From positions 2,604,001 through 2,668,000 of the forward strand of contig NC_006396.1 in NCBI RefSeq assembly GCF_000011085.1: a stretch of 64,000 nt of DNA. The letters are read 5' to 3'. Below are positions 8,240 to 43,474 of the stretch, piece by piece. Each line of letters begins with the position of its first letter. Positions within the stretch are counted from its first letter, which is position 1. The notes beneath the pieces were generated by a model that saw nothing but the letters and a program-made list of their open reading frames with translations, made no database searches and was not told the DNA's origin. Source of the stretch: Haloarcula marismortui ATCC 43049. GTDB taxonomy: Archaea; Halobacteriota; Halobacteria; Halobacteriales; Haloarculaceae. A program made the position numbers and the translations under genes.

Positions 8240-8294
8240 CACGAGCCCTGTCGTTCCAGTGACTGGTCTGGTTTTCGGTTGCGAACCCGGGCAG

Positions 8295-9935: not shown

Positions 9936-10934
9936 TCAGAACTCCACTGCCTCTCTGATACCGTCTTTGATGCGGGCGGGTTCGGGGAGGTAGTAGTCCT
10001 CTAACGCGTACAGCGGGTACGGCACGTCGAAGCCAGTCACCCGCGTAACGGGGGCCTCCTGATACAGCAGGACTTCCTCCTGAATGGTGGCGATGATTTC
10101 GCCGGCCAGCCCGCCGGTTTTGGGCGCTTCGTGGACAACGGTCGCTCGCCCGGTCTTTTTGAACGACTCGACGATGGTATCGGTGTCCATCGGCGATAGC
10201 GTTCGCAGGTCGATCACTTCGGCGTCGATGCCCTCCTCGGCCAGTTCCTCGGCGGCTTCGACCGTCGGCCGGGTCATCGCGCCCCATGTGAACACGGACA
10301 CGTCAGCCCCTTCGCGGCGGACCTTCGCCTCGCCAAGCTCGACGGTGTAGGGGTCGTCGGGGACCTCCTCGCGGAACGACCGGTAGATGAGCTTCGGTTC
10401 GAGGAAGATAACGGGGTCCGGGTCACGGATAGCCGCCGTCAGCAGCCCCTTCGTCTCCTTTGGCGTCGACGGGACGACCACCTTTAGCCCCGCCTCGTGG
10501 ACGTAAAACGCCTCCTTGGACTCGGAGTGGTGCTCCGGCGCACGGATGCCGCCGCCGTACGGTGCGCGAACGGTGAGCGGGCAATTGTATCGGCCGCGGC
10601 TCCTGTTCCGAAGCCGGGCGGCGTGACTGACAATCTGGTCGAACGCGGGGTACATGAACCCGGAGAACTGCATCTCCGGCACCGGCCGGAGCCCGTAGGC
10701 GGCCATGCCGATAGCCGTCCCGACGATGCCGGCCTCCGCGAGCGGTGTGTCGATGACCCGGTCGTCACCGAACTCCTCGTGGAGCCCCTGTGTCGCTCGG
10801 AAGACACCGCCGTTTTTCCCGACATCTTCACCCATCACGACCACGTCTTCGTCCCGTTCCATCTCGCCGTAGAGCCCGTCACGGACGGCCTGTACGAGCG
10901 TCAAACTCTGTGTGTTCGCGTCCTGTGTGCTCAT
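9936..10934 (-). CDS. pdhB: 2-oxoacid dehydrogenase E1 component, beta subunit
   Basis: Beta subunit of the thiamine-diphosphate E1 heterotetramer, 332 residues. Typical features are [36 protein letters not shown] and the C-terminal transketolase domain ([16 protein letters not shown]). It overlaps the E1alpha gene by 4 nt and is followed after 1 nt by the E2 gene, so translation is probably coupled. Haloarchaea normally decarboxylate pyruvate with a ferredoxin oxidoreductase, so the true substrate of this complex cannot be told from sequence. Confidence 0.95.
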
Positions 10935-12037
10935 TCCAGTAGCACCTCGTCGCCGTGTCGCGCGCGCAGTTCTTCGAGGTAGTCCAGTTGCTGTTCGAGT
11001 CGCTGTGGCATCTCCGCGTACACGTCCGCGAACATCTCCTCCGGTTTCGGTCGCTCCGTCGCCTCAGCCTCGTCGATGGCCGTAGCCACCTCATCCTGAA
11101 CCGATTCGTCGATGGCGTCGACCCGCTCGTCGTCGAGCAGGCCCCGGTCCCGGAGGAACGCCTCCATCCGCGGAATGGGGTCTTTCTGCTTCCAGCGTTC
11201 GACCTCGCTGTCGTCGCGGTACACCGACGGGTCGTCAGCAGTCGTGTGTGCGCCAAAGCGGTACTGAACCGCCTCGATCATCGTCGGGCGGAGTTCACCC
11301 GCTGGTGGGTCGTGCGCCTTGTCGACGGCCTCGCGGGTCACCTGATACACCGCCAGCGGGTCCATTCCGTCGACCTGGACGCCGTCGAAGCCGTAGGCGT
11401 TGGCCTTCTGGGCGAGCGTCTCGCTGGCCGACTGGCGCTCCCGTGGCACCGAAATCGCCCACTGGTTGTTGTTACAGAAAAACACCGCTGGCACATCGAA
11501 CACGCCAGCGAAGTTCAGGCCTTCGTGAAAGTCGCCCTCGGAGGTCGCACCGTCACCGAAGTACACGAGGGCAGCGGTGTCATCGCCCTTGAGTTTCGAT
11601 GCCCACGCGGCCCCGGTCGCGTGCGGAATCTGCGTCGCAATTGGGACCGCAAACGAGAACGCCTGAACGTCTTCCGGCGGCGAATTACCCGACTCCGACC
11701 CCATCCAGTACAACAGGTCGTCCGACAGGGGCCATCCCTTGACGTACATTGCGAGATGTTCCCGGTAGCTCGGGAACGCCCAGTCGCCGTCTCGCAGCGC
11801 GAAGGCGCTGCCGACCTGCGAGGCTTCCTGTCCCGACATGGGGGGGTACGTTCCCATCCGGCCCTGTCGTTGCAAACTCACCGCCCGCTGGTCGAAGTGC
11901 CGGCCGAGTTTGAGATACCGGTACATCTCCACCAGTTCGTCGTCCGAGAGGTCCGGGACGGTTGCGCCGTCGACCACTGTCCCGTCTTCATCGAGAATCT
12001 GTACCCTGTCCGTGGGGTCGCGTTGGAGGACACTCAT
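10931..12037 (-). CDS. pdhA: 2-oxoacid dehydrogenase E1 component, alpha subunit
   Basis: Catalytic thiamine-diphosphate subunit, 368 residues. The ThDP/Mg motif is [18 protein letters not shown] through [10 protein letters not shown], and the phosphorylation-loop region reads [16 protein letters not shown]. The start [12 protein letters not shown] lies 172 nt after the end of lipA, so the complex operon probably has its own promoter in 12040-12200 although lipA points the same way. It is the first gene of the E1alpha-E1beta-E2 unit. Confidence 0.95.
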
Positions 12038-12209
12038 AGAAACCGCCTCCGTCGAAGTGGCATACGACGACTGTTCACTCGCACTACGTTTAGAGCTTTC
12101 GCGGCGCTGAAAAATATCTCCGATGTGGGTATTACTGCTAATATGAGTGTTTTAGCGACTCTAAGGCTGTTTTAATTCTACCCAATTTATCAGCGATAAC
12201 TCCGATGTA

Positions 12210-13139
12210 TCAGTCGTTCGCACGCACTTCCGCCCGCGCCTCGTCGGCACTTCGCCCCTCGCGCAGGACGCTCTCGACAAACAGTTCGCCGGCACGATAG
12301 GACGACCGGACCATCGGTCCCGAGGCACAGTACAGGAAGTCGAACTCCGCTTCAGCGACCTGCTGCCAGGTGTCGAAGGCGTCCGGATGAACGTACTCTG
12401 AGACCTCCAGATGTGACCGGGAGGGCTGGAGGTACTGGCCGAACGTGACCACGTCGACGCCGGCCTGCCGGAGGTCCGACAGCGTCTGGTACACTTCGTG
12501 AGCGTACTCGCCGACGCCCAGCATCAGGCTGGTCTTGCTGTAGCAGTCGCTTTCGCGGTTGACCTGCCGAAGCACTGAGAGGGACTGCTCGTAGCCCGCC
12601 CGGCGGTCCCGGACCGGCCACTGGAGCCGGTCGACCGTCTCGATGTTGTGCGCGATGACGTCCGGGTCGGCGTCGATGATTTTCCGTACAAGGTCCGGCT
12701 CACCCTGAAAATCGGGGATGAGACACTCGACCAGAATCGACGGGTCACGCTCTTTGATGGCCCGGATCGTCTCGGCGAAGTGGCTCGCGCCCTGGTCGGG
12801 CAGGTCGTCGCGGTCGACGCTGGTCAGTACCACGTAGTCCAGCCCGATCTCCGCGACGGCGTCGGCCACCTGCTGTGGCTCGTCGGGGTCCAGCGGGTCC
12901 ATCCCGCCCGTCTCCACGTCACAGAAGTTACAGCCCCGCGAACAGCGGTCGCCCATCAACATGAACGTCGCCGTTCCCGGTCCGTCGCGCCCGCTCCAGC
13001 ACTCCCCGAGGTTGGGGCAGTTGGCTTCCTCACAGACCGTATTGAGGTTTCGGTCCCGGAGCGTCTGCTTGATATCGGTGAACCGCTCGCCCGACGGTGG
13101 CCGCATCTTCAGCCAGTCAGGCTTGCGCGAACGACTCAT
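12210..13139 (-). CDS. lipA: Lipoyl synthase
   Basis: Radical-SAM enzyme that inserts two sulfurs into octanoyl groups on lipoyl domains. The 309-residue protein has the radical-SAM cluster motif CSRGCNFCDV and the auxiliary-cluster cysteines CEEANCPNLGECW near the N-terminus, both diagnostic of LipA, and the C-terminal SSYRAGE that contributes the Ser ligand. Placed directly upstream of the E1-E2 genes, it should supply the lipoyl group for the E2 at 8295. Confidence 0.97.
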   Translation of the reverse strand: MSRSRKPDWLKMRPPSGERFTDIKQTLRDRNLNTVCEEANCPNLGECWSGRDGPGTATFMLMGDRCSRGCNFCDVETGGMDPLDPDEPQQVADAVAEIGLDYVVLTSVDRDDLPDQGASHFAETIRAIKERDPSILVECLIPDFQGEPDLVRKIIDADPDVIAHNIETVDRLQWPVRDRRAGYEQSLSVLRQVNRESDCYSKTSLMLGVGEYAHEVYQTLSDLRQAGVDVVTFGQYLQPSRSHLEVSEYVHPDAFDTWQQVAEAEFDFLYCASGPMVRSSYRAGELFVESVLREGRSADEARAEVRAND

Positions 13140-13294
13140 TACCGGCAGTTAGGTTGGGTCGGTCAAAAACGTGCGGGGGTCATGTCCTCTGTCACACCCC
13201 TTGTTGAAGGCCAGTCGGGCGGTCAGGCGGCTCAGCCGAACCGACCGCCACCTGCGTACTCAGGGATATCAACGCTACTGCCCGCGTGCCCACC

Positions 13295-14128
13295 TCAGGC
13301 ACGGCAGACAGCAAGCATATGTGCGGACATATCCACGACAGTTCGGTCCGTCCGGAGTTCGTCTACGAGCGCCTGAACACCGGCCCGCTCGTGTGCCGAC
13401 AGGTCGGCAGCGGTCTCTCGGAGCGATGGAGCGGCGAGTACTGACGCCAGCCCCTCCAGTCCGACCAGCGTCTCGATGGTCACTCCGCCCGCCTCTAACA
13501 GTGCCTCGAACTCATCGGCGCGGAAAAAATGGGTCTCGGTGAACGCCGCGTCGTGACCGAGCTGCGCCACGAACGAACGGTCGTAGTCGCCCGTTTCGGC
13601 GAGTTCGTCCGCATTGGCGAGGTGCTCCGACCTGCCGACCAGCGAGAGCACCAGCCAGTTGAGCCGCCCCATGACGGAGGCGAACACCGGACTCCCGGCT
13701 TTCGTCACCCGGTGCAGCTCCCGCACGGCGGCTGCCCGTTCGTCAGCGTCGAGTATATGCGAAAGCGGCCCACCCAGACACAGCGTCGCGTCGAATACGT
13801 CCCGGTCAAACCCGAGGTCGCGCACGTCGCCCGCCTCGACGGCCACCCGCTCTTCGTACCCGTGCTCGGCGATTTTCTCCTGTGCGATAGCTCGCTGGCC
13901 CTTGCTGGGGTCGACAAGCGTGACATCGTATCCCTGTTCGGCCAGCCAGACGGCGTACCGGCCAGCACCGCCGCCCACGTCGAGAACGTGTCCCGTGTCG
14001 GGGAGGTTCGCTTCGAGCTGTGCAACGGTCCCCGACCACTCCAACTGCCCGTGTAGCGTGGCTGTCAGGCGGTCCCACTCGCTCTCGTCGTTCTCGTCGT
14101 AATAGTCCTCGGGGTCACTGATAGGCAC
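13295..14128 (-). CDS. Class I SAM-dependent methyltransferase, substrate unknown
   Basis: 277 residues. SAM-binding motif I is VLDVGGGAGRYAVWLAEQG (about residues 48-66), followed by the acidic residue of motif II in VTLVDPSKGQ and motif IV in DATLCLGGPLSH. The C-terminal third is a helical cap seen in haloarchaeal methyltransferases acting on small molecules or quinones. No neighbour clearly predicts the substrate. Confidence 0.88.
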   Translation of the reverse strand: MPISDPEDYYDENDESEWDRLTATLHGQLEWSGTVAQLEANLPDTGHVLDVGGGAGRYAVWLAEQGYDVTLVDPSKGQRAIAQEKIAEHGYEERVAVEAGDVRDLGFDRDVFDATLCLGGPLSHILDADERAAAVRELHRVTKAGSPVFASVMGRLNWLVLSLVGRSEHLANADELAETGDYDRSFVAQLGHDAAFTETHFFRADEFEALLEAGGVTIETLVGLEGLASVLAAPSLRETAADLSAHERAGVQALVDELRTDRTVVDMSAHMLAVCRA

Positions 14129-14286
14129 ACCTGCGCACTATCAGCCAGCTGAGTTAATTTTTTGCCAGGTGTGCTGGACACTCACACCGATGAACTGCAC
14201 AGCGAAGCCAGAGAATGCATCCGCTTTTCACATACGTTCGCTCCCCCATAGAAACGCCTTTGCCGTCGCGGAACCGCGACTGTGAC

Positions 14287-16686
14287 GTGTCATCCAGAAC
14301 CGACAGCGAGCCGACTGTGGCGGTCGCGGAGGTGCTCCCCGAGTTTGCCGACGCCTTCCCGTTCGAGGAGTTCAACCGGATGCAGTCGGCGGCCCTGCCG
14401 GCCCTGCTGAACCGCGACGACAACGTCGTCGTCAGCGCGCCGACGGCCAGCGGGAAGACCGCGCTGGCGGAACTGGCCATCTGCAAGACGCTCGCCGAGG
14501 ACGGGACCGCGCTCTTTCTCGCACCGCTGCGCGCGCTCACCAACGAGAAGGAAAGCGAATGGGAGCGGTTCGAGGAGATGGGCTACTCCGTCTACGTCGT
14601 CACCGGTGAACGGGACCTGAACCCCCGCCGCGCCGAGCGGGCCGATATCCTCGTGATGACGCCGGAGAAGGCCGACTCGGCCACCCGGAAACACGAGACC
14701 AGCCGCTATTCGTTCATCACTGACGTGGACTGCTGTGTCATCGACGAGGTCCACCTGCTGGACTCGGACCGCCGGGGGGCGGTGCTCGAAGTCACCGTCT
14801 CGCGGCTCCGCCGGCTCTGTGACCCGCGCGTCGTGGCGTTGTCGGCGACGATGCCGAACATCGACGACGTGGCCGACTGGCTTGATGCTCCCGACGAGAC
14901 GACCTTTGCTTTCGGCGAGAAGTACCGACCGGTCCCACTCAACGCCGACGTGAAGACCTACTCCCACGGCGAGAACGCCTTTGCCGACAAGTACCGTCGG
15001 CTGTACCGGGCACTTGACCTCGCCGAGCCACACATCCGGGAGGAGGGCCAGGCGCTCGTGTTCGTCTCCTCCCGTCAGGACACGGTCCAGGCCGCGAAGA
15101 AGGCCCGTGACGAAATTGTCGAGCGAGATATTCCGATGGGCGCACGCGGGGACTACGACTTTCACAACGACGCCGCCGACCTCTCGAACGATACGCTTCG
15201 CCAGTCCGTGCTCGACGGCGTAGGCTTTCACCACGCCGGCCTCGCGCGCGAGGACAAAAATAGGGTTGAGCAGTGGTTCAAAGAGGGCAAGATTCAGCTT
15301 CTCTTCTCGACCTCGACGCTGGCATGGGGCGTGAACCTCCCCGCCCGCTGTGTCGTCATCCGCGATACCAAGCTCCACGACCCGCTCGAAGGCGAGGTCG
15401 ATATGAGCCCGCTTGATGTGCTCCAGATGCTCGGTCGCGCGGGCCGGCCGGGCTATGACGACATGGGCTACGCCTGGGTCGTCTGTGACCGCTCGGACGC
15501 TGACAAGTACCGCCGCCTCCTCCGGGATGGCAAGGAAATCGAGTCCCGATTGGCGGCTGAACTCGACGCCCACCTGAACGCCGAAATCGCGCTGGGCACC
15601 ATCGACGACGTGGACGACGTGATGGACTGGCTCGCCACGACATTTTACTACGCCCGCTCGCAGTCGGCCCCTGACAAGTACGATGCCGGCAGCGACCTCC
15701 GAAACCGGGTCAGCGACACCCTCTCGGCGCTCGTCGACGAGGGCTTTGTCGAGCAAGAGGGCCTCAACGTTGAGCCAACACGGCTCGGCCAGCTCGCCTC
15801 GAAGTTCTACCTCCGGCTCTCGACCGCACGCCGGTTCGCGGACGTCGCCGAACGCTGTCAAGACGCCGCCGACCCGGACTCCGCTGTCTCCGTGGATGCT
15901 GACGACCTGCTGACCGCGGTGGCCGGCGCAACCGAGTTCGACAGTGTCAGCGCCCGTTCCGACGAAGAGGACGCTGTCCACGCAGTTCTCGGGGACAGTG
16001 TCGACGACAGCCTCGACGCCGGCCAGCGAAAGGTGCTGGCCATCCTCCGCTCGGGTATGACCGGGACGACGCCGACAGAACTCAAAAGCGACGCGTGGGT
16101 CATCCGCCAAAACGCCCTGCGCCTGCTCGCGGCGATGCGGGAGTTCGTCGACACGCTCGGCCCGGCCCGCTACGCAAACCTCGCGTGTCGGGTCGAGGCC
16201 CGCGTCGAACACGGCATCAGCGCCGACGCTGTTGGGCTGACGGCCATCGATGGTGTTGCCAGCGGCCGCGCGGGCAAGCTCGCCGCGGCGGGGCTCACGT
16301 CCCCCGCTGACGTGGTCGAAGCCGGCGAAGACGGCCTCGTCCGTGCCGGGCTCTCAGATGGTGTTGCCGAGCAAGTGCTTGCCAACGCGCGGGACCTCCC
16401 CGTCGTTTCCATCGACTGGGGCGATTTTCCCGAGACAATCGCGCCCGGCGACAACGATATGCGGGAGGTAACGGTCGAAAACACCGGCGGCAGCGCCCGC
16501 GCGGGCCTTCGGGTCACGGTTAACGGGCGTGAGATGACCGCCAAACCGTCGTATCTCGGCCAGGCCACGCTTCCGGTTGCTGTCTTCGGCGCGGATGCCG
16601 ACGAACTTACCTTCACCGTCGAGGTCGCGTTCCCCGCGCTGCCGCTCCCGACAATTACCGAAACCCGGTCAGTGCTTGTCCGATAA
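14287..16686 (+). CDS. Hel308/Ski2-like superfamily 2 helicase
   Basis: ATP-dependent 3'-5' helicase of the Ski2/Hel308 group, probably in DNA repair or fork restart. Helicase motifs: Walker A APTASGKTALAE (about residues 50-61), DEVH box in CVIDEVHLLD, SATMPN, STSTLAWGVNLPA and QMLGRAGRPGYD. A winged-helix region follows, then a helix-hairpin-helix-like stretch (AIDGVASGRAGKLAAAGL), and an added C-terminal beta-rich domain (about the last 90 residues) absent from canonical Hel308. I chose GTG 14287 (799 aa, MSSRTDSEP); ATG 14215 would add 24 residues. A GTCGCGG/CCGCGAC inverted repeat at 14265-14280 sits just before the chosen start. Confidence 0.88.
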   Translation: MSSRTDSEPTVAVAEVLPEFADAFPFEEFNRMQSAALPALLNRDDNVVVSAPTASGKTALAELAICKTLAEDGTALFLAPLRALTNEKESEWERFEEMGYSVYVVTGERDLNPRRAERADILVMTPEKADSATRKHETSRYSFITDVDCCVIDEVHLLDSDRRGAVLEVTVSRLRRLCDPRVVALSATMPNIDDVADWLDAPDETTFAFGEKYRPVPLNADVKTYSHGENAFADKYRRLYRALDLAEPHIREEGQALVFVSSRQDTVQAAKKARDEIVERDIPMGARGDYDFHNDAADLSNDTLRQSVLDGVGFHHAGLAREDKNRVEQWFKEGKIQLLFSTSTLAWGVNLPARCVVIRDTKLHDPLEGEVDMSPLDVLQMLGRAGRPGYDDMGYAWVVCDRSDADKYRRLLRDGKEIESRLAAELDAHLNAEIALGTIDDVDDVMDWLATTFYYARSQSAPDKYDAGSDLRNRVSDTLSALVDEGFVEQEGLNVEPTRLGQLASKFYLRLSTARRFADVAERCQDAADPDSAVSVDADDLLTAVAGATEFDSVSARSDEEDAVHAVLGDSVDDSLDAGQRKVLAILRSGMTGTTPTELKSDAWVIRQNALRLLAAMREFVDTLGPARYANLACRVEARVEHGISADAVGLTAIDGVASGRAGKLAAAGLTSPADVVEAGEDGLVRAGLSDGVAEQVLANARDLPVVSIDWGDFPETIAPGDNDMREVTVENTGGSARAGLRVTVNGREMTAKPSYLGQATLPVAVFGADADELTFTVEVAFPALPLPTITETRSVLVR

Positions 16687-33801: not shown

Positions 33802-33877
33802 GCCAAGGTGGCAGAGTCTGGCCTAACGCAGCGGCCTGCAGAGCCGCCCATCGCCGGTTCAAATCCGGCCCTTGGCT
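33802..33877 (+). tRNA. tRNA-Cys (GCA)
   Basis: 76 nt. The acceptor stem GCCAAGG pairs with CCTTGGC; the discriminator is T, as in nearly all tRNA-Cys. The anticodon loop is CTGCAGA, anticodon GCA. The T-arm contains CCGGTTCAAATCCGG. tRNA-Cys after 5S is a usual arrangement in haloarchaeal rRNA operons. The AT-richer accessory region begins just past it. Confidence 0.97.
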
Positions 33878-34210: not shown

Positions 34211-35209
34211 ATGTGGTTGTTGGGTCAGAAAACGCGGCGGACAGTCGTCGACAACCACGAACTGCTACTGATTTGTCTGGTTGCTATCGCTGCAGTTGGG
34301 GGATATCTCACGTATACGGGGCACGTTGCTCCAGGAACGGACACAACCACGCGGCAGGTGTCGTCGTGGCAATCGTCTGGCTCGTTCTCCCACAACGCGA
34401 CAGTTCGCAACGGGACCTCAGCGTTTCCAGAGGGTGAAGTGCTTGAGGACAGATCCGTGTACCTCCAGCGGGTCGCTCCCGTACTGGACGGAGCGTTCAC
34501 CTACACGTACAGTGCCAGCAACGAAAGTGACCTCACCGCTTCAGCTGACGTGTTCGTTCAGTATCGGTCCGTTGAATCGACGCAAAACGGAGCTCTCGTC
34601 TACTGGGAAGTCGAACGACCGCTGACACAGGGCACTGTGCAATCGCTGGCCGCGGGCGAACATATGGCGGTTCCGCTCTCGCTGAATGTCAGTCGCGCAG
34701 CTGAAGCCGTTCGACGTATCGATTCCGAACACGGCCAGACATCCGGTCGACTTAAGATAGCGGTGGTCTCTCAGGTAACTCTCTCGGGGACACGTAACGG
34801 GCAGTCAGTCGACACGGCTCGCACGTACCGCTCTGGACCCTCGGTGGCCAGTGCTCCCGCTTGGTTGCCTTGGCGGCGCTACTCCCTCGTCTACGGGCGC
34901 ACGACCGACTATTTCACACTTACTGACGCCGAGCGCCGATGGCTCGTATACAAGTCCACTCGCGAGGAGTTTGATGAATGGATAACCGTTGGCCGAGATG
35001 ATCCAGTCGACGACGTCTGGACGACTTCCGTCGATTCGCTCGTCTGGCTCGTGGATATCGCAATAGACACCGATGAACGTATCATTGAGTCAAATAGCGA
35101 TTCTGATTTCCTCGTGTACACTGGTGACCGATTGTTTCGGTACGACCCTCCGCCAGAACCCAGAACTGATTCCACTATGGGCAACAGTGACGCTGAAACA
35201 TCGGACTGA
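34211..35209 (+). CDS. DUF5305-like membrane protein, copy 1
   Basis: 332 residues from ATG 34211. One helix near the N-terminus (LLLICLVAIAAVGGYLTYTG) is followed by an extracytoplasmic beta-rich domain with many possible N-glycosylation sites, a second hydrophobic patch (SAPAWLPWRRYSLVYG), and a cytoplasmic tail with EFDEWITVGRD and DSLVWLVDIAIDTDERIIE. The tail is closely similar to the DUF5305 protein at 40866 (NDFDEWISTARI, DSLVDLVDIAIDSDRRVLE), so the two are paralogues flanking the TasA-like genes. Archaeal DUF5305 proteins are often found with SipW peptidases. Role unknown; an accessory to fibre assembly is an inference. Confidence 0.82.
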   Translation: MWLLGQKTRRTVVDNHELLLICLVAIAAVGGYLTYTGHVAPGTDTTTRQVSSWQSSGSFSHNATVRNGTSAFPEGEVLEDRSVYLQRVAPVLDGAFTYTYSASNESDLTASADVFVQYRSVESTQNGALVYWEVERPLTQGTVQSLAAGEHMAVPLSLNVSRAAEAVRRIDSEHGQTSGRLKIAVVSQVTLSGTRNGQSVDTARTYRSGPSVASAPAWLPWRRYSLVYGRTTDYFTLTDAERRWLVYKSTREEFDEWITVGRDDPVDDVWTTSVDSLVWLVDIAIDTDERIIESNSDSDFLVYTGDRLFRYDPPPEPRTDSTMGNSDAETSD

Positions 35210-35219
35210 CCGAGTTATT

Positions 35220-36524
35220 TTATTGCTCTTTGGTGCCGTCGTCGTCGGCTTGCGGTTCAAGCATCGCATCGAGTTCAGGGACCAGTCGGTACCCGGTCAC
35301 CGTGCCGACTGCAGCGGAGAACGCGAGTGCAACACCCAGCTGTGTGACTGAGCCGAAGCCAGCGCTCGAAACCGCTGACACGACAAGAATTGTGAGCACA
35401 ATCCCGGCAAGACCGATCGCTGCTTCGCGGATAGCGACGCGGCGGAATCGGTAACGGCGGTCACTCGGTTGTGTCTGGAGTACCGGGAGGACGTCATGAT
35501 ATCGCGTCTGGACGAGGTAGTTTGTCACTACCGCGAGCAGGCCAGCGATGAACGCCCATGGGCCCCAGCTAACTCCGAATGCCGGATCGAAACCGAGGGT
35601 GAATCCACTCGGCTCGGCTGACTGCTGGCTTTCGGGTGTCGGCGGTACAGGTTCGGCCCCGCCGCCGGCCACAGTTTCGGGTTCTTCTTCGCTGTCAGTG
35701 GGCGTCTCAGTCGGCTCCTCGGTCGATGCCCCGACGCCACCGCCGCCACCGCTTTCTCCGCCAGCGGGCGTTTCAGCCGGCTCGTCAGTTGTTATCGCAA
35801 CCTCTGGGCTGTCGGTACTCTCCTCGCCAGTGTCGCCGCTATCGCTTACGTTGGTACCACCGTCACCAACACTGCCTGCATCTGTGCCGTCCCCATCGCC
35901 GGTGCCACCGCCGTCACTTGACCCGGTGTCACCACCACCGCTGCCCCCTGCACCAGTATTACCGCCTGCATCACCCCCGCTACCACCACTTCCGCTGTCA
36001 CCATTGCCACCATTACCTCCACCAGTGCCTGACTCGGCATCTGGAATTTCCATGGTGTACGTCACTTTCTCAGAGAGGGATGCCGGGCTGTCGGCGCTTG
36101 TCGTCACGGTGAATCCGAGCGTTGCCTGCTCGCCCGGGTCAAGCGTAAGCGTGTTACTCGCCTCATCGACCGACTCGCGTGCGCCTGCATCTGTGTTCCT
36201 GTAGATGCCCAACCACTCGCTATCGTGCACGATCCGGATCGCCGCCTCCTCGTCGCTACCGTTGACTCCCGCAAAGCCGACAACAAACACGTCGTCGAAT
36301 ACAGTCTCAGTGCTAAAAAAAACGTCAACGGATATAATAAGCTCGCCGTTGCTGTCAAACGATGCGTAGCGGTCGCCGTTGGGCGTGTCAGCTGGGGCCA
36401 GCGCAACCCCGGTGTCCTCCGCTGGGGCGAGTTCGTCAACGGGTTCGGAGAGTGGGACCGCAGCCGTGGACATGACTGTCCCGCAGACGATGAACACGAG
36501 CCCAAGGGCGAAGTACCATTTCAT
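35220..36524 (-). CDS. DUF1102-like exported protein with Gly/Ser-rich stalk and membrane anchor
   Basis: 434 residues. A signal-like helix (WYFALGLVFIVCGTVMSTAA) leads to a domain of about 140 residues resembling DUF1102 (NGELIISVDVFFSTETVFDD, then EWLGIYRNTDAG and LTLDPGEQATLGFTVTTSAD). Residues 165-300 are a low-complexity Gly/Ser/Asp then Thr/Glu/Pro-rich stalk. The C-terminus has about three helices (WGPWAFIAGLLAVVTNYLV; IGLAGIVLTILVVSAVSS; LGVALAFSAAVGTVTGY). It could be the cell-surface anchor for fibres made by its neighbours; that role is inferred. It converges with the DUF5305 gene, 10 nt away. Confidence 0.78.
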   Translation of the reverse strand: MKWYFALGLVFIVCGTVMSTAAVPLSEPVDELAPAEDTGVALAPADTPNGDRYASFDSNGELIISVDVFFSTETVFDDVFVVGFAGVNGSDEEAAIRIVHDSEWLGIYRNTDAGARESVDEASNTLTLDPGEQATLGFTVTTSADSPASLSEKVTYTMEIPDAESGTGGGNGGNGDSGSGGSGGDAGGNTGAGGSGGGDTGSSDGGGTGDGDGTDAGSVGDGGTNVSDSGDTGEESTDSPEVAITTDEPAETPAGGESGGGGGVGASTEEPTETPTDSEEEPETVAGGGAEPVPPTPESQQSAEPSGFTLGFDPAFGVSWGPWAFIAGLLAVVTNYLVQTRYHDVLPVLQTQPSDRRYRFRRVAIREAAIGLAGIVLTILVVSAVSSAGFGSVTQLGVALAFSAAVGTVTGYRLVPELDAMLEPQADDDGTKEQ

Positions 36525-36596
36525 ATTCTGGCTGGAGGTAGCGACTTACCCGGACAGTGATAGCCTTCACATTTCAGTGATAAGCCGGACTGGTTA

Positions 36597-37205
36597 CTAC
36601 GCGCTACTGTAGTCGTCCCGCCGTGCTGCGAAGACAATCGATTTTATATCGTCAATGTCTGCGTCAGTATTGTTCCGAAGATCAACAACAATTGTAAGAG
36701 TGATCTCAGTACCGGCGGCTAAGTCGACAGCGTTGTCACCTTCGCTATCGCTATCGACGATTGATCTTCCGTCCGTGCCCGTAGTTTCAATATCTAGTGC
36801 ACTCCCAACAAGACCGCTTGCACTTGCGCCTTCTTCGTACTCGGTCTCATCAGGATTCACCGAAAGACCGACATCCTTGTTGCTGTCATTACTGACTTTG
36901 AGGGCATTCTTGAATGTGGTCGTCGCATTTTTGTTGAGGTTGGTCTGCTTAATCTCGATAACAGACGTATCTGACCCTTCTGGGGTCGTAGATATGATAC
37001 CGTTAGTGTCCTCAGGGGTTCCACCGTTAGTCGTACCTAGCTTATTCGCCTCGAAACTCAGCAGCGCACTTGAATCATCAGAGGTCTCTATATTGACTGA
37101 TCGCGTCGCTTCAACTGAGGAGAACGCGCCGGAGCCAAACGCGCCGCCGACAGTCGCACTGAGTGTCCCGAGCCCGAGCAGGACACTTCGTCGATTTACT
37201 CTCAT
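36597..37205 (-). CDS. DUF1102 / TasA-like exported protein A
   Basis: 202 residues. The N-terminus MRVNRRSVLLGLGTLSATVG is a twin-Arg-like signal followed by GSGAFSSVEATRSVNIET, the Gly-Ala-Phe-Ser/Thr block conserved in DUF1102 proteins and comparable to the site SipW cuts in bacterial TasA/camelysin. The mature part is beta-rich and acidic, with no transmembrane helix, ending in a strand-rich segment (AAGTEITLTIVVDLRNNT). Likely secreted structural subunit. It is transcribed divergently from a paralogue at 37378, with a large palindrome between them. Confidence 0.82.
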   Translation of the reverse strand: MRVNRRSVLLGLGTLSATVGGAFGSGAFSSVEATRSVNIETSDDSSALLSFEANKLGTTNGGTPEDTNGIISTTPEGSDTSVIEIKQTNLNKNATTTFKNALKVSNDSNKDVGLSVNPDETEYEEGASASGLVGSALDIETTGTDGRSIVDSDSEGDNAVDLAAGTEITLTIVVDLRNNTDADIDDIKSIVFAARRDDYSSA

Positions 37206-37248
37206 CGGTTATGCTACAAAACGCTATCCGACCAATTACTATTGACGC

Positions 37249-37287
37249 GCCTGAGCGGGGTTAATGCCGCCCATTAACGCCTCAGGC
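37249..37287. promoter_or_regulatory. 39-bp nested palindrome between divergent TasA-like genes
   Basis: GCCTGAG (37249-37255) and CTCAGGC (37281-37287) enclose GTTAATG (37260-37266) and CATTAAC (37272-37278): two nested 7-bp inverted repeats sharing a centre within one base. It lies between the starts of the minus gene (37205) and plus gene (37378), upstream of a TATA-like GTATAATAG at 37311-37319. A shared operator for both genes is the simplest reading. Confidence 0.6.
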
Positions 37288-37377
37288 ACGGCTATAACCC
37301 CACTCAAGCAGTATAATAGTAAGTCCCCGGAAACTGTTGTAACTGGTACGGCACCGTCATAACGTGCTGACTAACAT

Positions 37378-38046
37378 ATGAATCGCAGAAACGTACTTAC
37401 GGGACTTGGTGGACTGGCAATCAGTGGTGGGGCGCTCTTCGGAACAGGTGCATTCACGAGCGTTAGCGCAGAGCGTACGGTCGAGGTGAACGTCATCACC
37501 GAGAACGACACCGGGGCCAGTGAGGACGTCTCGGACCTCATCGCGGAGGAATTTGTGGACGTTCGTGTTGATGTTGGCAAGTACAATTCGGTGTATGTGA
37601 ACGATGATAGCACAGACCCTATAGACCTCGAACCGACTGGTGATGGGAATACCCCGGCTCAACAGGTCAGCCTCATCGCGAACAACGATCCGACGATCGT
37701 TTTCGGCGCACAGAGCAGTGGCTTGCTCAACAACGCAACGACGAGCTATGAGAATCTCTTCATCGTCGATAACAGAGAAGGGGACACCTCGCAGGACTTT
37801 AACGTCGAACTCAGCCTCTCCGAGAACGGCACCGGCTCGTGGCTCGACATTGGCGGTGGCGATACCGTTGGTGGGAATGGCACAGGCAATAGTGACCTCG
37901 AACCGATCGCTGCTGGTACCTACTCCGACGGCTCGAGCCTGCAAAAATTTGGAGCCACTGTCGACACCAGCGGTGTTTCCGAAAACACTGGCGGCGCTGA
38001 CGACACTGACACGCTGACGATCAAGATTGAACAGGATTCGTCGTAA
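37378..38046 (+). CDS. DUF1102 / TasA-like exported protein B
   Basis: 222 residues. The signal MNRRNVLTGLGGLAISGGAL leads to FGTGAFTSVSAERTVEVNVI, the same block as in protein A. The mature region is acidic and rich in Asn/Asp/Gly/Ser, predicted beta, with no membrane anchor, ending TDTLTIKIEQDSS. The short final strand and the N-terminal strand after the signal fit donor-strand-type polymer subunits, which is inference. GTATAATAG at 37311 could be the TATA box, giving a short leader. Confidence 0.82.
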   Translation: MNRRNVLTGLGGLAISGGALFGTGAFTSVSAERTVEVNVITENDTGASEDVSDLIAEEFVDVRVDVGKYNSVYVNDDSTDPIDLEPTGDGNTPAQQVSLIANNDPTIVFGAQSSGLLNNATTSYENLFIVDNREGDTSQDFNVELSLSENGTGSWLDIGGGDTVGGNGTGNSDLEPIAAGTYSDGSSLQKFGATVDTSGVSENTGGADDTDTLTIKIEQDSS

Positions 38047-38488
38047 CGATTCGGAACCTCACTGAGCGTTGAATCAACCACGACGCCAGATTGAACACGT
38101 GCTTCCGAGCGAGTCAGTACCCATACGACGCCTTCGCCGGTCGTATTGAGTTCTGACTGAACCAGTATCAATTCGCTCGGTGTTCAATGAATCGTAGTTC
38201 GATAGTAAATTGGCTCAAAGATACCCCATCTCGTGAAGAAATATATCGTGACTTCAACTGATGACAGTAGCATAAGCACGGCTAGAGCTAAATCAAAAGT
38301 GCCAAAATAAACAAATTTACTACGGCTTCCCACGCTAGACCAACTTTCAGACCACGGTCAAGTACCACTACTTTCGAAGCTATCGATTGTAAATTCTACC
38401 CGATTGGTATTCAATATACATACAACTTTGTTATCATTGACATTCCAGAAGACTTTTTATATTATGGAACAGTTTATGGACAACGGCA
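38047..38488 (+). other. AT-rich intergenic region ahead of the regulator operon
   Basis: 442 nt with no credible gene on either strand and clearly higher A+T than the core genes. The only clear signal is TTTTTATATTA at 38454-38464, a strong TATA box about 27 nt before the GTG at 38489, making that mRNA leaderless. The rest may hold regulator sites or decayed DNA. Confidence 0.55.
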
Positions 38489-39052
38489 GTGGGTGGGAAG
38501 CAAAGCAACCAGACAGGGGCTGGTGACGCGATTACACGGGATGAAGTATTTGACTTACTCAGTAATCACCGCCGGCGATACGCGCTACACGTAGCGAAGC
38601 AGACAGACGGTGACTCAGAGCTATCAGACATTGCTGAACAGGTGGCGGCGTGGGAAAACGGGAAACCACAGAGTGAGATCACGTCCAGTGAGCGCCATCG
38701 CGTGTACACGTCAATGCAACAGACGCATCTGCCCGCGATGGACCGCGCGGGCGTGATCGAATACGATAATGGAACAGTCACACTGACCGAACAGGCAGCG
38801 GACCTCGACGTGTACATGGATGTCGTGCCGGAGGACTCCATCCCGTGGGGACAGTACTACCTCGGGCTGGCAGTGCTGTCGGGTGCTATCGTCGGCGCTG
38901 CCGGACTGAATGTGTTCCCAGCCAGCATTCCTGACCTCGCGTGGGCTGGTCTCGTCGTCATGCTGTTTCTCTGTTCCGGGCTGTATCACGTCTGGCAGAG
39001 CCAGCAACTCCGCCTTGGATCGGGCGAGACGCCCCCGGATGTTGAAATATGA
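38489..39052 (+). CDS. Membrane-anchored winged-helix regulator, DUF7344-like
   Basis: 187 residues. The N-terminal 115 form a winged helix typical of haloarchaeal regulators: DEVFDLLSNHRRRYALHVAK, then ELSDIAEQVAAWENG, SERHRVYTSMQQTHLPAMDR and AGVIEYDNGTVTLTEQA. Two C-terminal helices follow (YYLGLAVLSGAIVGAAGLNV; DLAWAGLVVMLFLCSGLYHV). GTG 38489 lies about 27 nt after a TATA box, which decides the start. The stop overlaps the next gene by 4 nt (ATGA), so the regulator and the malectin-domain protein form an operon. It may sense envelope state and control the locus. Confidence 0.88.
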   Translation: MGGKQSNQTGAGDAITRDEVFDLLSNHRRRYALHVAKQTDGDSELSDIAEQVAAWENGKPQSEITSSERHRVYTSMQQTHLPAMDRAGVIEYDNGTVTLTEQAADLDVYMDVVPEDSIPWGQYYLGLAVLSGAIVGAAGLNVFPASIPDLAWAGLVVMLFLCSGLYHVWQSQQLRLGSGETPPDVEI

Positions 39053-40584
39053 GCAAGAAGTGGACTCGCCGGAGTGCACTCGCACTGATCGGTAGCGGTG
39101 CCGGACTCCTTACGTGGGGAACTGGTGGGTTCACAGACGTGACTGCTGACCGTCAGGTGAATATTAATACGACCGCCGACGACAATGGTGATCCTACTGA
39201 TAACCCATTGCTCGGCATCACTACGCACGATGGTCAGGTCGTGTTTGAAACTGAAACCCGTAAGCTAGTCACGTTGACGAACAATATCGGGCCGAAACTC
39301 GATACGGTAAAGGCGAACGTTCAAAATAAAGCTCAATTGGACTTTGACGTGGAAATCGACAGCGTTCCGAACTCGCTCGATGACGAGTCCGGCACAGTGA
39401 CTGCGACAGTCACTGGATCGGGAAGCAACTGCATCAAGGAGACGGGACAGATTGAATTGAAAATTTCTGCGTTATCAACCTCCACTGACTCGGCTCCTGA
39501 AATCACAGCGACCCGTAGCATATCGCTTTCCTGTGTGAACTGTCTCAATTTTGAACAACCGGAAACCGTCACACCGTCGGGTTTCATCCCTGACACGGGG
39601 AGCCAGTTCGGCCTCCGCGACGAGTTCGATCCAAAATCAATGCTCTCCTACGGGTGGGAAAGTGAGCAGACTGATACAACCAGAGAGCGAGGCGAGCTTC
39701 AGGCTACTGAGGAGGATACACTTGCACACTTTACGACTAATATTCCTACTGCATACGACGCTTCTGAGGATCCGTACTGGGAAATAGACCTGCCGAATGG
39801 CTGGTACGATGTGACGATGCACTGCCGGGACCCGTCCTATTCGGATCAGGAGTACTCGTTTGATGTTGTTGGCGGCGCTGAGACTGTCAAACTACGGGAT
39901 CGAGCGTTTGATTACGGAAGCAAAGAGCGTCCTACCAAAGCCGAAACATACAGTTTCCCTGTTGAAGTAAATAACAACGAAGAGCTGCAAATCACTCCAC
40001 CAGACGGGACATTCAACCCGAAAATCTCCTGGCTTCGGTTTGAATCGCGCGAAGACGAACCTAAACCGACGGTAAATCTCTCCGCCAAAGGGGCCTCAAA
40101 TAAACGCGGAATCTCACAGAATCAGGATTACTATTTCAAGATTACAAACAATCACGACGCCCCTATTGACCTAACTGCTGTCCGGGTTGACTTTGCTCGG
40201 ACCGTATATGCTGGAGAATACATAGAACCGGACTTGTTTGGCAGAATATACGGCGACAACTACGAGATAGAAATTTCCGTCGGTGAGGATCTGTCATTTA
40301 ACGATGGTACATCAGTCAACGCTGACTATAGAGATGCCCTCAGAAATCAGTGGTATGATGATATTGGTGAAAAAGCGGCATTAAAGGCCACCCGCCGCGG
40401 AGGTCAATTAGTCGCAAATGAAGAAGCAGAGTTGGGACTATTTGGATTCAGGAGACAAACAGAATGGGGCACCGATCTACTTGATATGAAAGGTGCGGAT
40501 GTCCATATTACACTCTGGTATAAGAAGGAAGGAAACAATACTGAATATAGCACTACATCAGCTGTCTTTAGTAGTGAAACGTAG
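39049..40584 (+). CDS. TasA-like exported protein with malectin-like carbohydrate-binding domain
   Basis: 511 residues. The signal MSKKWTRRSALALIGSGAGL runs into WGTGGFTDVTADRQVNINTT, the block shared with proteins A and B; the first 165 residues are DUF1102-like. Residues about 195-335 resemble malectin/di-glucose-binding domains (EEDTLAHFTTNIP, YWEIDLPNGWYDVTMHCRD, then TFNPKISWLRFE). The rest is beta-rich and unrecognised. A CVNC pair near 162-165 is unusual in a secreted haloarchaeal protein. Codon use is more A/T-rich than in flanking core genes. Likely a sugar-binding minor subunit or adhesin. Confidence 0.82.
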   Translation: MSKKWTRRSALALIGSGAGLLTWGTGGFTDVTADRQVNINTTADDNGDPTDNPLLGITTHDGQVVFETETRKLVTLTNNIGPKLDTVKANVQNKAQLDFDVEIDSVPNSLDDESGTVTATVTGSGSNCIKETGQIELKISALSTSTDSAPEITATRSISLSCVNCLNFEQPETVTPSGFIPDTGSQFGLRDEFDPKSMLSYGWESEQTDTTRERGELQATEEDTLAHFTTNIPTAYDASEDPYWEIDLPNGWYDVTMHCRDPSYSDQEYSFDVVGGAETVKLRDRAFDYGSKERPTKAETYSFPVEVNNNEELQITPPDGTFNPKISWLRFESREDEPKPTVNLSAKGASNKRGISQNQDYYFKITNNHDAPIDLTAVRVDFARTVYAGEYIEPDLFGRIYGDNYEIEISVGEDLSFNDGTSVNADYRDALRNQWYDDIGEKAALKATRRGGQLVANEEAELGLFGFRRQTEWGTDLLDMKGADVHITLWYKKEGNNTEYSTTSAVFSSET

Positions 40585-40860
40585 GAGATGCTTGACGAGG
40601 CCATACTCACTTGACATAATAAATACAGCGATCCAACCGGACGAATCCCCCTACATTGGAAGCGCAAAAAATAAATACGACTACTTGATGTTTTGTATTT
40701 GTATATAGACCCTATTTACACAACATATCAATGTGTAAAACCGTCGTGGCAACTACTACTGGAGTATCTAAAAACCAAACAATACAAGAACGGAAAAGTC
40801 TAATATCGGGATCACTTCAACAGCAGTAGTTCCGTATTGCCTGTATCAAAAGAAAGTGGA
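40585..40860 (+). other. AT-rich gap between the malectin-domain and second DUF5305 genes
   Basis: About 275 nt without a recognisable gene. A small open frame runs out of the previous gene but has no family look. It contains several TA-rich stretches, none at the ideal distance for ATG 40866. Confidence 0.4.
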
Positions 40861-40865
40861 ATGAG

Positions 40866-42092
40866 ATGACAGCAACCCTTTTTTCAGCGTCTGTCCGCTC
40901 CGCTCTCAATCGCTGGTTTGTGCTAGTACTACTCGTTACACTTACGCTAACGCTTGCCGGCGGCTACGTCACGTACGACAGCCATGTTGACGGAGCAGAA
41001 ACGGTTACTGAACAACAGACCGTCGGCACGTGGACGGTGGAAAGCGGGTTCGAACACGGCGCCACAGTCTCGCGTGATACCGAGGTTTTCAGTGCGGGTG
41101 AGCGACTTCGCAACCGGTCGCTGTATTTCACGACGGCATCACCCGAACTCGATGGCACGTACACGGTTTCACACGACAACACTGAGGGGAACGCGGCAGT
41201 GACCTCGACGAACCTGTCACTGGTCATCCGCGCTGTTGAGGAGCGAAACGGGAATCAGGTGGTCCACTGGCAGACACGCGACTCGCTCGACACACTCGAT
41301 GCCGTCGAGATAGCAGACGGCGAGACGGCAACAACCACAGTTAGCGTGGATATCCCGACAATCCTCAACCGTACCGAAGCAATACAGAACGATCTGGGGG
41401 CTGCCCCCGGACAGACAGAGGTCCTCCTTGTCGCCGATACGACCGTCGAGTCGTCGGTCAACGGAGAGACGTTCACGGATACCCGCACCGACCGCATCGA
41501 AATTGTGCCCGGACGGAGTGTCTACCGCGTTAGCACTACCACAGCCGGAGAGACCCCCTACGACGCGACCGAGCAAGTGACTCGGACCATCGAACCGACA
41601 CGGCTGGAACTGTACGGCGGGCCTGTACTCTGTGTGTTCGGACTGTTTTGTATGGCCTTCCTCGGGACAGCACGCTGGCGTGGCTGGCTTGCAGTCACCG
41701 ACCGCGAGCGAGTGCGCAACGAGTTCGAGCGTGCACGTAACGATTTCGACGAGTGGATCTCGACGGCACGAATCCCGGATGCCGACGACCGGACACCTGT
41801 CCCGACGGACTCGCTGGTAGATCTTGTTGACATTGCTATCGATAGTGACAGGCGCGTCCTCGAAGACGGCGATCAGTATGCAGTCCTCGTTGATAGTGAA
41901 ATCTACACGTACACGGCGCCACCGACTGTCGACCCGCTCGCGTCACCATCGACACGCGATACTGAGCCCACCGTGGAAGACAGAGAAGGAGCGACGGCGT
42001 CGCTTTCAAGCCTGCTTTTCACCGACTCGACTGATAATGCTGATGTGACACATCCTGATGAAAACGAGCCGTCCGATTCAAACGACGGATGA
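40866..42092 (+). CDS. DUF5305-like membrane protein, copy 2
   Basis: 408 residues. The N-terminal helix FVLVLLVTLTLTLAGGYVTY is followed by an extracytoplasmic domain of about 210 residues (QQTVGTWTVESGFEHGATV), a second helix (YGGPVLCVFGLFCMAFLGTA), and a cytoplasmic tail with NDFDEWISTARI and DLVDIAIDSDRRVLEDGDQY. It is a paralogue of 34211 and precedes the signal-peptidase gene. An acidic low-complexity end follows. Topology suggests a bitopic assembly or anchoring factor; function not known. Confidence 0.82.
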   Translation: MTATLFSASVRSALNRWFVLVLLVTLTLTLAGGYVTYDSHVDGAETVTEQQTVGTWTVESGFEHGATVSRDTEVFSAGERLRNRSLYFTTASPELDGTYTVSHDNTEGNAAVTSTNLSLVIRAVEERNGNQVVHWQTRDSLDTLDAVEIADGETATTTVSVDIPTILNRTEAIQNDLGAAPGQTEVLLVADTTVESSVNGETFTDTRTDRIEIVPGRSVYRVSTTTAGETPYDATEQVTRTIEPTRLELYGGPVLCVFGLFCMAFLGTARWRGWLAVTDRERVRNEFERARNDFDEWISTARIPDADDRTPVPTDSLVDLVDIAIDSDRRVLEDGDQYAVLVDSEIYTYTAPPTVDPLASPSTRDTEPTVEDREGATASLSSLLFTDSTDNADVTHPDENEPSDSNDG

Positions 42093-42331
42093 CGCCGTTG
42101 ATCGGTCACTTTTTGCAATTGTTGATTGCTCCGGTATAGCTTGTGCTGCTTATGGCACTCTGTGGCCACGGAGGGGATAGATCCTGATAGCGGGAGACAC
42201 TGCTCCTGGCTGCCACAAACGATGGTTCGGAACGCAGTATCCCGTGACGACAGGGTGGTTGCGTCACTCCCATCGACTCAGCAACACCGATTTATATTCT
42301 GCTAGTCTACATCGCGTAGCAACAGACTGGT

Positions 42332-43474
42332 ATGCTCCGAACGTATGTGGCGAGAGGGCTGACAATCGCCGGGTTTGTGTTGGTTCTGGCACTCATCGTA
42401 GGTGCACTGGTTGGGCAGCCGGTACTTTTGAGCTTTGTCGTGTCCGGAAGTATGTCGCCAACGATTCAGGAAGGCGACGGCTTCGTTGCGATTCCGGAGC
42501 AGGTTGCGGGCGACATTGAACAGGGCGATGTCATCGTGTTCCAGTCACAGGAGATTCGTGGTGGGGAGTTGACGACACACCGAGTTGTCGGTGAAACTGA
42601 GCAAGGATACATTACCAGGGGGGATGCGAACCCGTTCACGGATCAGGATGGGGCCGAACCCCCAGTGACTGAAAGCCAGATCGTCGCGGTCGCATGGCAA
42701 CCCAGTGGACAGGTGGTGACAATCCCGAATTTCGGCACGGCCATCCTTGCCGGCCGCGTCGTCGTCACAAACGTTCTGACTGCGGCTACGACGGTCCTTG
42801 GAGTTGAGCAGGCAGCCGAGTCTTGGCAGGCAGGCTCGGTGATGTTGGTCTCCGGCGTGATACTGTTTGCAATAAGCATCGGTAGTGGGATCGTGAACGG
42901 GTCTTCGCGCGAACGAGCCCGTTCGCGTGGGCAGGATACCTTCGACCCACGGTACGCCGCGCTCTTTCTGACCGCAATCATCATTGTGCCAGCCAACATC
43001 GCAATGGTGGCTCCGAGCTCGACCCATCAGATTCCGGCGGGTGAGATCGCAACTGGGAATAACATCGCCCCTGGTGAGCCGGTTGAAGCTACGCTTGTAG
43101 CCAACAACGAAGACGCACTGGTGACAATGCTCGTCGTGTTTAACGCGTCCGGTCAGACGACAATCGAGAGCCGGTGGCTCGATGTCCCAGGCGGCGAAAC
43201 GGACTCAACAGCGTTGTATGCACCCGCACCGCCACGAGGCGAACAGAAGGTTGTAACCGTCTCTGAGCATCGCTACATCGTTTTGCTTCCCCCCACCGTT
43301 ATTATCGCGATGCATGACATTCATCCACTGGTGGCATTAGGTGTAATTAATGCGGCGCTCACCGTGGCTGTACTGGCATTCGTCATTGGGTTGCTCGGGA
43401 CAAGCAAACGACGTGTCCGCGACACCGACCGAGACATCCCGCTGTATCTGCGAATAAAGCGTAGATTGTTGTGA
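42332..43474 (+). CDS. SipW-type signal peptidase I with C-terminal extension
   Basis: Membrane serine protease removing signal peptides. Residues 1-150 are the peptidase: N-terminal helix (TIAGFVLVLALIVGALVG), catalytic Ser about S40 in VVSGSMSPTIQEGD, catalytic His about H83 in LTTHRVVGE, and the Asp-containing box E GYITRGDANPFTDQ. Ser-His(-Asp) instead of Ser-Lys is the archaeal/ER/SipW type. Unusually, about 200 extra residues follow with helices (VMLVSGVILFAISIGSG; TAIIIVPANIAMVAP; LGVINAALTVAVLAFVIGLL) and an extracytoplasmic loop. TTTATATT at 42291-42298 gives a leader of about 10 nt. Likely processes the DUF1102 proteins nearby. Confidence 0.88.
   Translation: MLRTYVARGLTIAGFVLVLALIVGALVGQPVLLSFVVSGSMSPTIQEGDGFVAIPEQVAGDIEQGDVIVFQSQEIRGGELTTHRVVGETEQGYITRGDANPFTDQDGAEPPVTESQIVAVAWQPSGQVVTIPNFGTAILAGRVVVTNVLTAATTVLGVEQAAESWQAGSVMLVSGVILFAISIGSGIVNGSSRERARSRGQDTFDPRYAALFLTAIIIVPANIAMVAPSSTHQIPAGEIATGNNIAPGEPVEATLVANNEDALVTMLVVFNASGQTTIESRWLDVPGGETDSTALYAPAPPRGEQKVVTVSEHRYIVLLPPTVIIAMHDIHPLVALGVINAALTVAVLAFVIGLLGTSKRRVRDTDRDIPLYLRIKRRLL

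What the first reader, a model, noticed from the sequence alone, without database searches (positions are those of the whole stretch)
34211..43474. Archaeal TasA/SipW-like fibre locus
Seen: four exported proteins, three sharing the signal-end block G-T/S-G-A/G-F-S/T-S/D-V, one with a stalk and membrane anchor and one with a malectin-like domain; two DUF5305-like bitopic proteins; a membrane-anchored winged-helix regulator; and a Ser/His signal peptidase of SipW type. Known: in Bacillus, SipW processes TasA/camelysin to make biofilm fibres, and archaeal bundling pili use TasA-like subunits. Inference: this locus makes and anchors a surface fibre with a sugar-binding minor subunit, controlled by its own membrane regulator.
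Basis: partly seen in the sequence, partly recalled or inferred. Interest (0 to 1): 0.78.

Follow-up and report, generated by a model that had tools for sequence, protein, structure and literature searches.

The report
Haloarchaeal Tat-fimbriae locus, swapped subunits
This stretch of a salt-loving archaeon's chromosome encodes a recently described kind of surface fibre (Tat-fimbriae, "tafi"); its secretion and control genes match those of sister species, but the exposed parts of three fibre subunits look replaced just behind their unchanged export signals.

Summary
In detail: four exported subunits, a membrane wHTH regulator and a SipW-type Ser/His signal peptidase. NCBIfam: TafF (557 bits, cut-off 420) and TafE (208/155) pass; TafA (159/190) and TafC (110/410, N-terminus only) fall short.

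(ii) Against other type-1 Haloarcula, SipW and wHTH are 90-96% identical and signal peptides 94-100%, but mature TafA is 34-38%, TafE 44-52% and TafC 27-29%, DNA similarity ending just behind the signals. (iii) TafC has a swappable C-terminal module (LamG, ricin-B, bactofilin-like; here an unnamed one). (iv) A 33-kb contig of the same genome carries a second TafC-F-E-A set without peptidase or regulator. Known kind, new variant.

The parts
33802..33877 (+). tRNA-Cys (GCA), left boundary of the variable locus
   Evidence: ARAGORN; same tRNA beside the cluster in L036, L038, L040
34154..35209 (+). DUF5305a, leftover gene of the type-2 cassette; ~55 aa incl. second TM helix missing, probably decaying
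   Evidence: PF17231 in two separate stretches; 81-85% identical to intact type-2 copies with an internal deletion; one TM only
35220..36524 (-). TafF: Sec-type start, DUF1102-like domain, Gly/Ser/Thr-rich stalk, C-terminal membrane helices (proposed base/anchor)
   Evidence: NCBIfam NF052523 556.8 bits, cut-off 420; hydropathy
36597..37205 (-). TafE: Tat signal, fimbrial adapter subunit
   Evidence: NCBIfam NF052522 207.8 bits, cut-off 155; RRSVL motif
36597..37054 (-). mature part of TafE with no DNA similarity to type-1 Haloarcula alleles in the stringent comparison
   Evidence: blastn similarity stops at 37054; signal 94%, mature 44-52%; mosaic test 1/2000
37206..37377 (.). divergent tafE/tafA promoter region with nested dyads (37240-37255/37281-37296 and 37257-37266/37272-37281), conserved also in the plasmid copy; candidate operator
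37378..38046 (+). TafA-like major subunit: Tat signal; DNA similarity to sister alleles ends at 37493
   Evidence: NCBIfam TafA 159.1 bits, below cut-off 190; PDB 9p0a 2e-6 single sequence, 1.3e-43 by profile
38489..39052 (+). DUF7344 winged-helix regulator with two C-terminal TM helices; its stop overlaps the tafC start
   Evidence: PF24035 2.8e-28; TM helices; alignment of 7 orthologues, 55-93% identical
39049..40584 (+). TafC-like subunit: Tat signal, Ig-like N-domain (to ~39537), module 1 (39538-40068), module 2 (to 40581); proposed exchangeable end piece
   Evidence: TafC model N-terminus only, 109.8 bits, cut-off 410; N-domain pLDDT ~90; module in L131, L132, L073
39173..39184 (+). point where DNA similarity to type-1 Haloarcula tafC ends, just behind the signal peptide
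   Evidence: mosaic test 0/2000
40866..42092 (+). DUF5305b, intact membrane protein with N-terminal and second TM helix (proposed assembly/anchoring helper)
   Evidence: PF17231 7.3e-65 full length; two TM
42332..43474 (+). SipW-type signal peptidase with extra C-terminal membrane/beta region
   Evidence: TIGR02228 66.4 bits, cut-off 51.85; Ser40/His83 invariant; only match over 1e-40 in the genome
46788..46861 (-). tRNA-Lys (TTT), right landmark of the syntenic site

Best explanation
This is a haloarchaeal Tat-fimbriae (tafi) locus in a Haloarcula genome. Proposed working: TafA, TafE and TafC leave folded through the Tat pore; the co-encoded SipW-type peptidase trims them near the conserved GxGxF..V block; TafF stays in the membrane as base and stalk; TafE couples it to a TafA shaft; TafC ends the fibre with an exchangeable binding module. 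DUF5305b assists assembly or anchoring in the membrane, and the membrane DUF7344 winged-helix protein controls the divergent tafE/tafA promoters and tafC. The cassette sits at a fixed tRNA-bounded address where two old alleles have replaced each other, and in this strain the mature parts of TafC and TafE, and probably TafA, were exchanged behind unchanged signal peptides. Shown: gene families, Tat motifs, conserved neighbourhood, two allele types of different ancestry, abrupt loss of similarity after the signal peptides, mosaic ancestry of TafC and TafE. Inferred: subunit order, processing by this SipW, roles of DUF5305 and the regulator, binding by TafC.
For: TafF and TafE over curated cut-offs, TafA-like and TafC-like N-terminus; PDB 'Pilin' 9p0a at 1.3e-43; RR signals; partners conserved in 53 full-flank loci: DUF5305 44, wHTH 49, pilin 51, TafC 46, TafF 36; two cassette orders at one syntenic site; SipW tree puts type 1 with Haloarculaceae and type 2 with Haloferax/Halorubrum, 100/100; machinery 84-96% and signals 94-100% against mature subunits 27-52% identical; similarity break points; mosaic tests TafC 0/2000, TafE 1/2000; same pattern in other genera; modular TafC tails.
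Against: TafA and TafC models are below their equivalog cut-offs; no experiment; the TafA fold search was not significant; TafA exchange was not significant with the donor tested (336/2000); the TafC binding module has no recognised fold; the original tafi paper could not be read.
Confidence: 0.8

Rival explanations
1. The locus makes fimbriae, but the mature subunits diverged by fast point evolution under selection (viruses, grazers), not by segment exchange.
For: TafA has no clearly closer donor anywhere (34-41% to all) and its mosaic test is not significant; type-2 alleles show gradual divergence, mature TafA 77-88%.
Against: Mature TafC is 51-59% identical to other genera but 27-39% to Haloarcula type-1 alleles while its signal is 94-100% identical to the latter; TafC and TafE mosaic tests 0/2000 and 1/2000; in a Halorubrum pair with 98% identical SipW only mature TafA changed, 40%, with its signal at 100%.
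Confidence: 0.2
2. A TasA/camelysin biofilm-fibre system of the Bacillus kind.
For: SipW-type peptidase beside beta-rich exported subunits; weak archaeal bundling-pilus fold hit.
Against: Tat, not Sec, signals; Bacillus SipW model 35 bits against a cut-off of 190; no TasA hit by profile or fold; curated Taf models fit.
Confidence: 0.12
3. The locus is a broken, inactive fimbrial island: foreign low-GC subunits on an old backbone, with decay already visible in DUF5305a.
For: DUF5305a has lost ~55 aa; GC of the mature segments is 0.44-0.56 against a window mean of 0.62; a second set exists on contig C2.
Against: All seven type-1 genes are open frames; SipW, wHTH and DUF5305b are 84-96% identical to relatives; the promoter region is conserved. 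The decayed gene belongs to the other allele type and three type-1 clusters do without any trace of it.
Confidence: 0.07

Closest known systems
Haloarchaeal Tat-fimbriae (tafi), TafA/C/E/F (Galeva et al., iScience 2025, 28:111793; cited in PMC12687288)
   Same: TafF and TafE equivalogs, TafA- and TafC-like genes, Tat signals, same genus
   Different: TafA below cut-off; TafC shares only its N-domain; the cluster is a type-1/type-2 hybrid with a relic DUF5305a; mature subunits swapped; second set on contig C2
Bacillus TasA/TapA/SipW fibres
   Same: SipW-type Ser/His peptidase encoded with secreted fibre subunits
   Different: Tat signals; no detectable TasA homology; anchored TafF, DUF5305 and DUF7344 partners not part of the TasA operon; Bacillus SipW model far below cut-off
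[quoted passage not shown]
   Same: Top archaeal fold matches of the TafA model, ranks 2 and 3
   Different: E 0.08-0.09, not significant; different organisms; gene sets not compared here
PDB 9p0a 'Pilin'
   Same: Sequence homology along TafA, profile E 1.3e-43, with the same RR signal block
   Different: Single-sequence similarity is mainly in the signal region; organism and publication not found

Membership tests
Tat-fimbriae (tafi) | TafF and TafE equivalogs | tested here: met
   556.8/420 and 207.8/155 bits
Tat-fimbriae (tafi) | TafA equivalog | tested here: not met
   159.1 bits against 190; full-length homologue but divergent. The C2 contig copy passes, 214.5
Tat-fimbriae (tafi) | TafC equivalog | tested here: not met
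   109.8 bits against 410, residues 1-163 only; sister Haloarcula TafCs pass, 533-569. Filed as TafC-like
Tat-fimbriae (tafi) | Twin-arginine signals on the subunits | tested here: met
   RRSVL, RRNVL, RRSAL motifs in TafE, TafA, TafC; none in TafF; motif only, no export assay
Tat-fimbriae (tafi) | Thin filaments on the cell surface | not testable with these tools
   needs microscopy
Bacillus TasA/SipW fibres | Homology of the main subunit to TasA | tested here: not met
   no TasA by PDB profile or fold; the model was of modest confidence
Bacillus TasA/SipW fibres | SipW-type Ser/His peptidase | tested here: inconclusive
   archaeal signal peptidase I model met, Bacillus SipW model 35 bits against 190; Ser40 and His83 invariant
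Archaeal bundling pili | Fold match | tested here: inconclusive
   7ueg rank 2, E 0.083
DUF5305 bitopic proteins (two in the locus) | Complete domain with two TM helices | tested here: inconclusive
   copy b meets it; copy a lacks ~55 aa and the second helix
Malectin-like domain in TafC | Profile or fold match | tested here: not met
   no Pfam or PDB match for the window module; weak AGA-YXIM_GBD hit, E 0.006, in a 32% identical relative
DUF7344 regulator | DUF7344 domain plus membrane helices | tested here: met
   98.5 bits, cut-off 27.8; two TM; one of 14 DUF7344 matches in the genome

The most novel reading that the evidence does not exclude
Tafi are an archaeal serotype-switching surface system. 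A fixed chassis (promoters, Tat signal peptides, SipW, membrane regulator, anchor) stays at one tRNA-bounded address. The mature shaft and end-piece segments are exchanged by recombination inside the subunit genes, just behind the signal peptide, and extra-chromosomal satellite sets (as on this strain's 33-kb contig) serve as alternative wardrobes that use the chromosomal peptidase and regulator. TafC carries interchangeable lectin or beta-solenoid heads that set what the cell sticks to or which viruses can use the fibre.
Probability: 0.45. Interest if true: 0.72.

Novelty: new variant of a known kind. Interest (0 to 1): 0.52.

Why it matters
Tafi are among the newest archaeal surface fibres. 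The constant-signal / swapped-mature-subunit pattern recurs across Haloarcula, Halorubrum, Natrinema and Natronorubrum, the reverse of the usual fast-evolving signal peptide. It suggests that archaea diversify fimbriae by segment exchange, much as bacteria vary pilins. The modular TafC heads give concrete, testable candidates for what haloarchaeal fimbriae bind, and the constant DUF5305 and membrane DUF7344 partners point to assembly and control proteins that are not yet characterised.

Tried and rejected
Structure route: the TafA model (pLDDT 69) and the whole TafC model (54) gave no significant specific fold match; TafC's N-domain looks Ig-like with fimbrial-chaperone and sialidase hits, too general to use. 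Malectin claim: Pfam, PDB sequence and PDB profile searches of the module found nothing firm. Literature: the tafi paper and the bundling-pili paper are not held; no held paper mentions DUF5305, DUF1102, SipW-like or DUF7344 or 9P0A. Considered and rejected: two working DUF5305 proteins (copy a looks like a relic); TafC lost in G187 (it is there at L139 9818-10915 by tblastn, missed by the ORF step).
Full report
OBSERVATION. 36597-37205(-), 37378-38046(+) and 39049-40584(+) begin with RR signals and share the GxGxF..V block; 35220-36524(-) has a Sec-type start, a 145-residue Gly/Ser/Thr-rich stalk and C-terminal hydrophobic helices. DUF5305 is found twice, DUF7344 once and an S26 peptidase once.

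IDENTITY. NCBIfam names the system: TafF 556.8 bits (cut-off 420) and TafE 207.8 (155) pass; TafA 159.1 (190) and TafC 109.8 (410, residues 1-163 only) do not. Taf proteins form Tat-fimbriae, 'tafi': haloarchaeal filaments whose components are exported by Tat, with core component TafA (Galeva et al. 2025 as described in PMC12687288; the paper itself is not held). The TafA/TafE profile matches the solved PDB chain 9p0a 'Pilin' at 1.3e-43. TasA does not appear; the TafA model's archaeal fold hits (7ueg bundling pili, 7pnb thread) have E 0.08-0.09.

ORGANISM AND NEIGHBOURHOOD. The nearest named relatives are Haloarcula sebkhae, H. argentinensis and H. vallismortis. A SipW-anchored scan of named genomes gave 80 loci, almost all labelled haloarchaeal. 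Of the 53 with full flanks, DUF5305 is present in 44, the membrane DUF7344 regulator in 49, a pilin in 51, a TafC-like gene in 46, a TafF-like gene in 36, and DUF5305, wHTH, pilin and TafC together in 35. The loci were selected by SipW, so the figures describe the partners of this SipW group, not of all SipWs.

TWO CASSETTES AT ONE ADDRESS. Where the flanks were held, the Haloarcula cluster lies between tRNA-Cys and tRNA-Lys, with flanking DNA 86-97% identical. Two gene orders occur. Type 1: F-E-A-wHTH-C-DUF5305b-SipW (H. argentinensis, H. sebkhae, H. vallismortis, G102, G106). Type 2: DUF5305a-F-E-A-wHTH-C-SipW with SipW reversed (H. amylolytica, G083, G084, G055, G168, G187). SipW proteins of the two types are only about 44% identical. 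In a maximum-likelihood tree type 1 groups with other Haloarculaceae and type 2 with Haloferax and Halorubrum, both well supported: different ancestry at the same site. The window is type 1 plus a leftover DUF5305a, 81-85% identical to intact type-2 copies but lacking about 55 residues including the second membrane helix. G102 keeps a frame-broken copy and H. vallismortis a 71-codon scrap, a graded decay series.

CONSTANT SIGNALS, SWAPPED SUBUNITS. Against the five other type-1 clusters the window's SipW is 93-96% identical, wHTH 90-96%, DUF5305b 84-90%, TafF 72-81% and the signal peptides 94-100%; but mature TafA is 34-38%, TafE 44-52% and TafC 27-29%. DNA similarity stops at 37493 in tafA, 37054 in tafE and 39173-39184 in tafC, that is 39-50 codons into each gene, and resumes outside (with looser scoring tafE aligns through at about 74% together with tafF). 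In a three-sequence test with G102 and G179 the window TafC switches resemblance near residue 51 (0 of 2000 shuffles as strong) and TafE near residue 29 (1 of 2000); TafA does not reach significance (336 of 2000), and wHTH and DUF5305 show no switch. Mature TafC is 51-59% identical to other genera but 27-39% to Haloarcula type-1 alleles. The pattern recurs: two Halorubrum loci with 98% identical SipW differ in mature TafA alone (signal 100%, mature 40%; TafE 96%, TafC 94%), and Natrinema and Natronorubrum pairs behave alike. Exchange is well supported for TafC and TafE here, and possible but not proven for TafA.

TAFC AS A MODULAR END PIECE. Across 47 TafC-like proteins the N-domain is shared and the C-terminal part changes: bactofilin-like 9, FapA beta-solenoid 6 (sets overlap), LamG 7, ricin-B 1, CBM4_9 1, FG-GAP 1. 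Module 1 of the window was in none of the 14 other Haloarcula genomes sampled, but in TafCs of two other genera of the family inside complete taf clusters and in one MAG (57-60%); a weaker copy sits in a 1458-residue TafC of another family. That weak copy hits a galactose-binding-like Pfam model below its cut-off (E 0.006). The malectin-like call is therefore a reasonable guess, not a result.

SECOND SET IN THE SAME GENOME. Contig C2 (33.4 kb; a ParA-like sequence suggests a plasmid) carries TafC-like (bactofilin-like tail), TafF (559.7 bits), TafE (191.6) and TafA (214.5). The genome holds a single strong SipW and DUF5305 only in the window locus, so the C2 set probably borrows the chromosomal peptidase and, given its conserved tafE/tafA promoter region, the regulator. 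Its TafE is the closest relative of the window's mature TafE (67%), while the two mature TafAs are not close behind near-identical signals.

MECHANISM. Proposed: Tat export of TafA/E/C, SipW trimming, TafF base and stalk, TafE adapter, TafA shaft, TafC end piece with an exchangeable head, DUF5305b helping in the membrane, and the DUF7344 protein controlling the divergent promoters (nested dyads at 37240-37296) and, through the overlapping start, its own operon with tafC. Gene families, motifs, neighbourhood, allele history and mosaicism are shown; subunit order, processing, regulation and binding are inferred, the order partly from NCBIfam names ('fimbrial adapter').

VERDICT. A real tafi locus: known kind, new variant, with a pattern of segment exchange that I have not seen described. 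Whether the tafi paper already reports subunit variability could not be checked.

Noticed in passing
G000 contig C2 (L034) 10774-14577: Second TafC-F-E-A set on a 33-kb probable plasmid of the same genome, without SipW, DUF5305 or wHTH; its TafC has a repeated 'VNADGNVSLGKKAQIKGS' bactofilin-like tail.
   Followed up: partly
L140 (G211:C15) ~10944 and L141 (G269:C18) ~9855: TafF C-terminal fragments with an in-frame TGA on small contigs of two other Haloarcula genomes: remnants of further satellite taf sets.
   Followed up: no
L041/L095 (Halorubrum): Two loci with 98% identical SipW, TafE 96% and TafC 94% differ in mature TafA alone (signal 100%, mature 40%): the cleanest single-subunit swap seen.
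   Followed up: partly
L069 (PULR01000059.1): A contig labelled 'Mollicutes bacterium' carries a haloarchaeal taf-like cluster and its SipW groups with Natronomonas: probably a mis-binned contig.
   Followed up: no
window:38047-38488: 442-base low-GC (0.43) gap between tafA and the regulator gene, conserved only in its last 75-125 bases.
   Followed up: no
L134 (G141) 5544-9920: Giant 1458-aa TafC-like protein combining LamG, a copy of the window's module 1 and further domains; a second gene of the same genome (L133) has a similar LamG plus module 1 array.
   Followed up: partly
L080 and L070: Halovenus MAG and Natronocalculus loci with arrays of many tandem Tat-pilin genes (up to nine in L080) beside SipW.
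   Followed up: no
window:42332-43474: This SipW group has a C-terminal half of membrane helices and a beta-rich outer stretch beyond the S26 core, with invariant GEQ and HPL motifs; function unknown.
   Followed up: no
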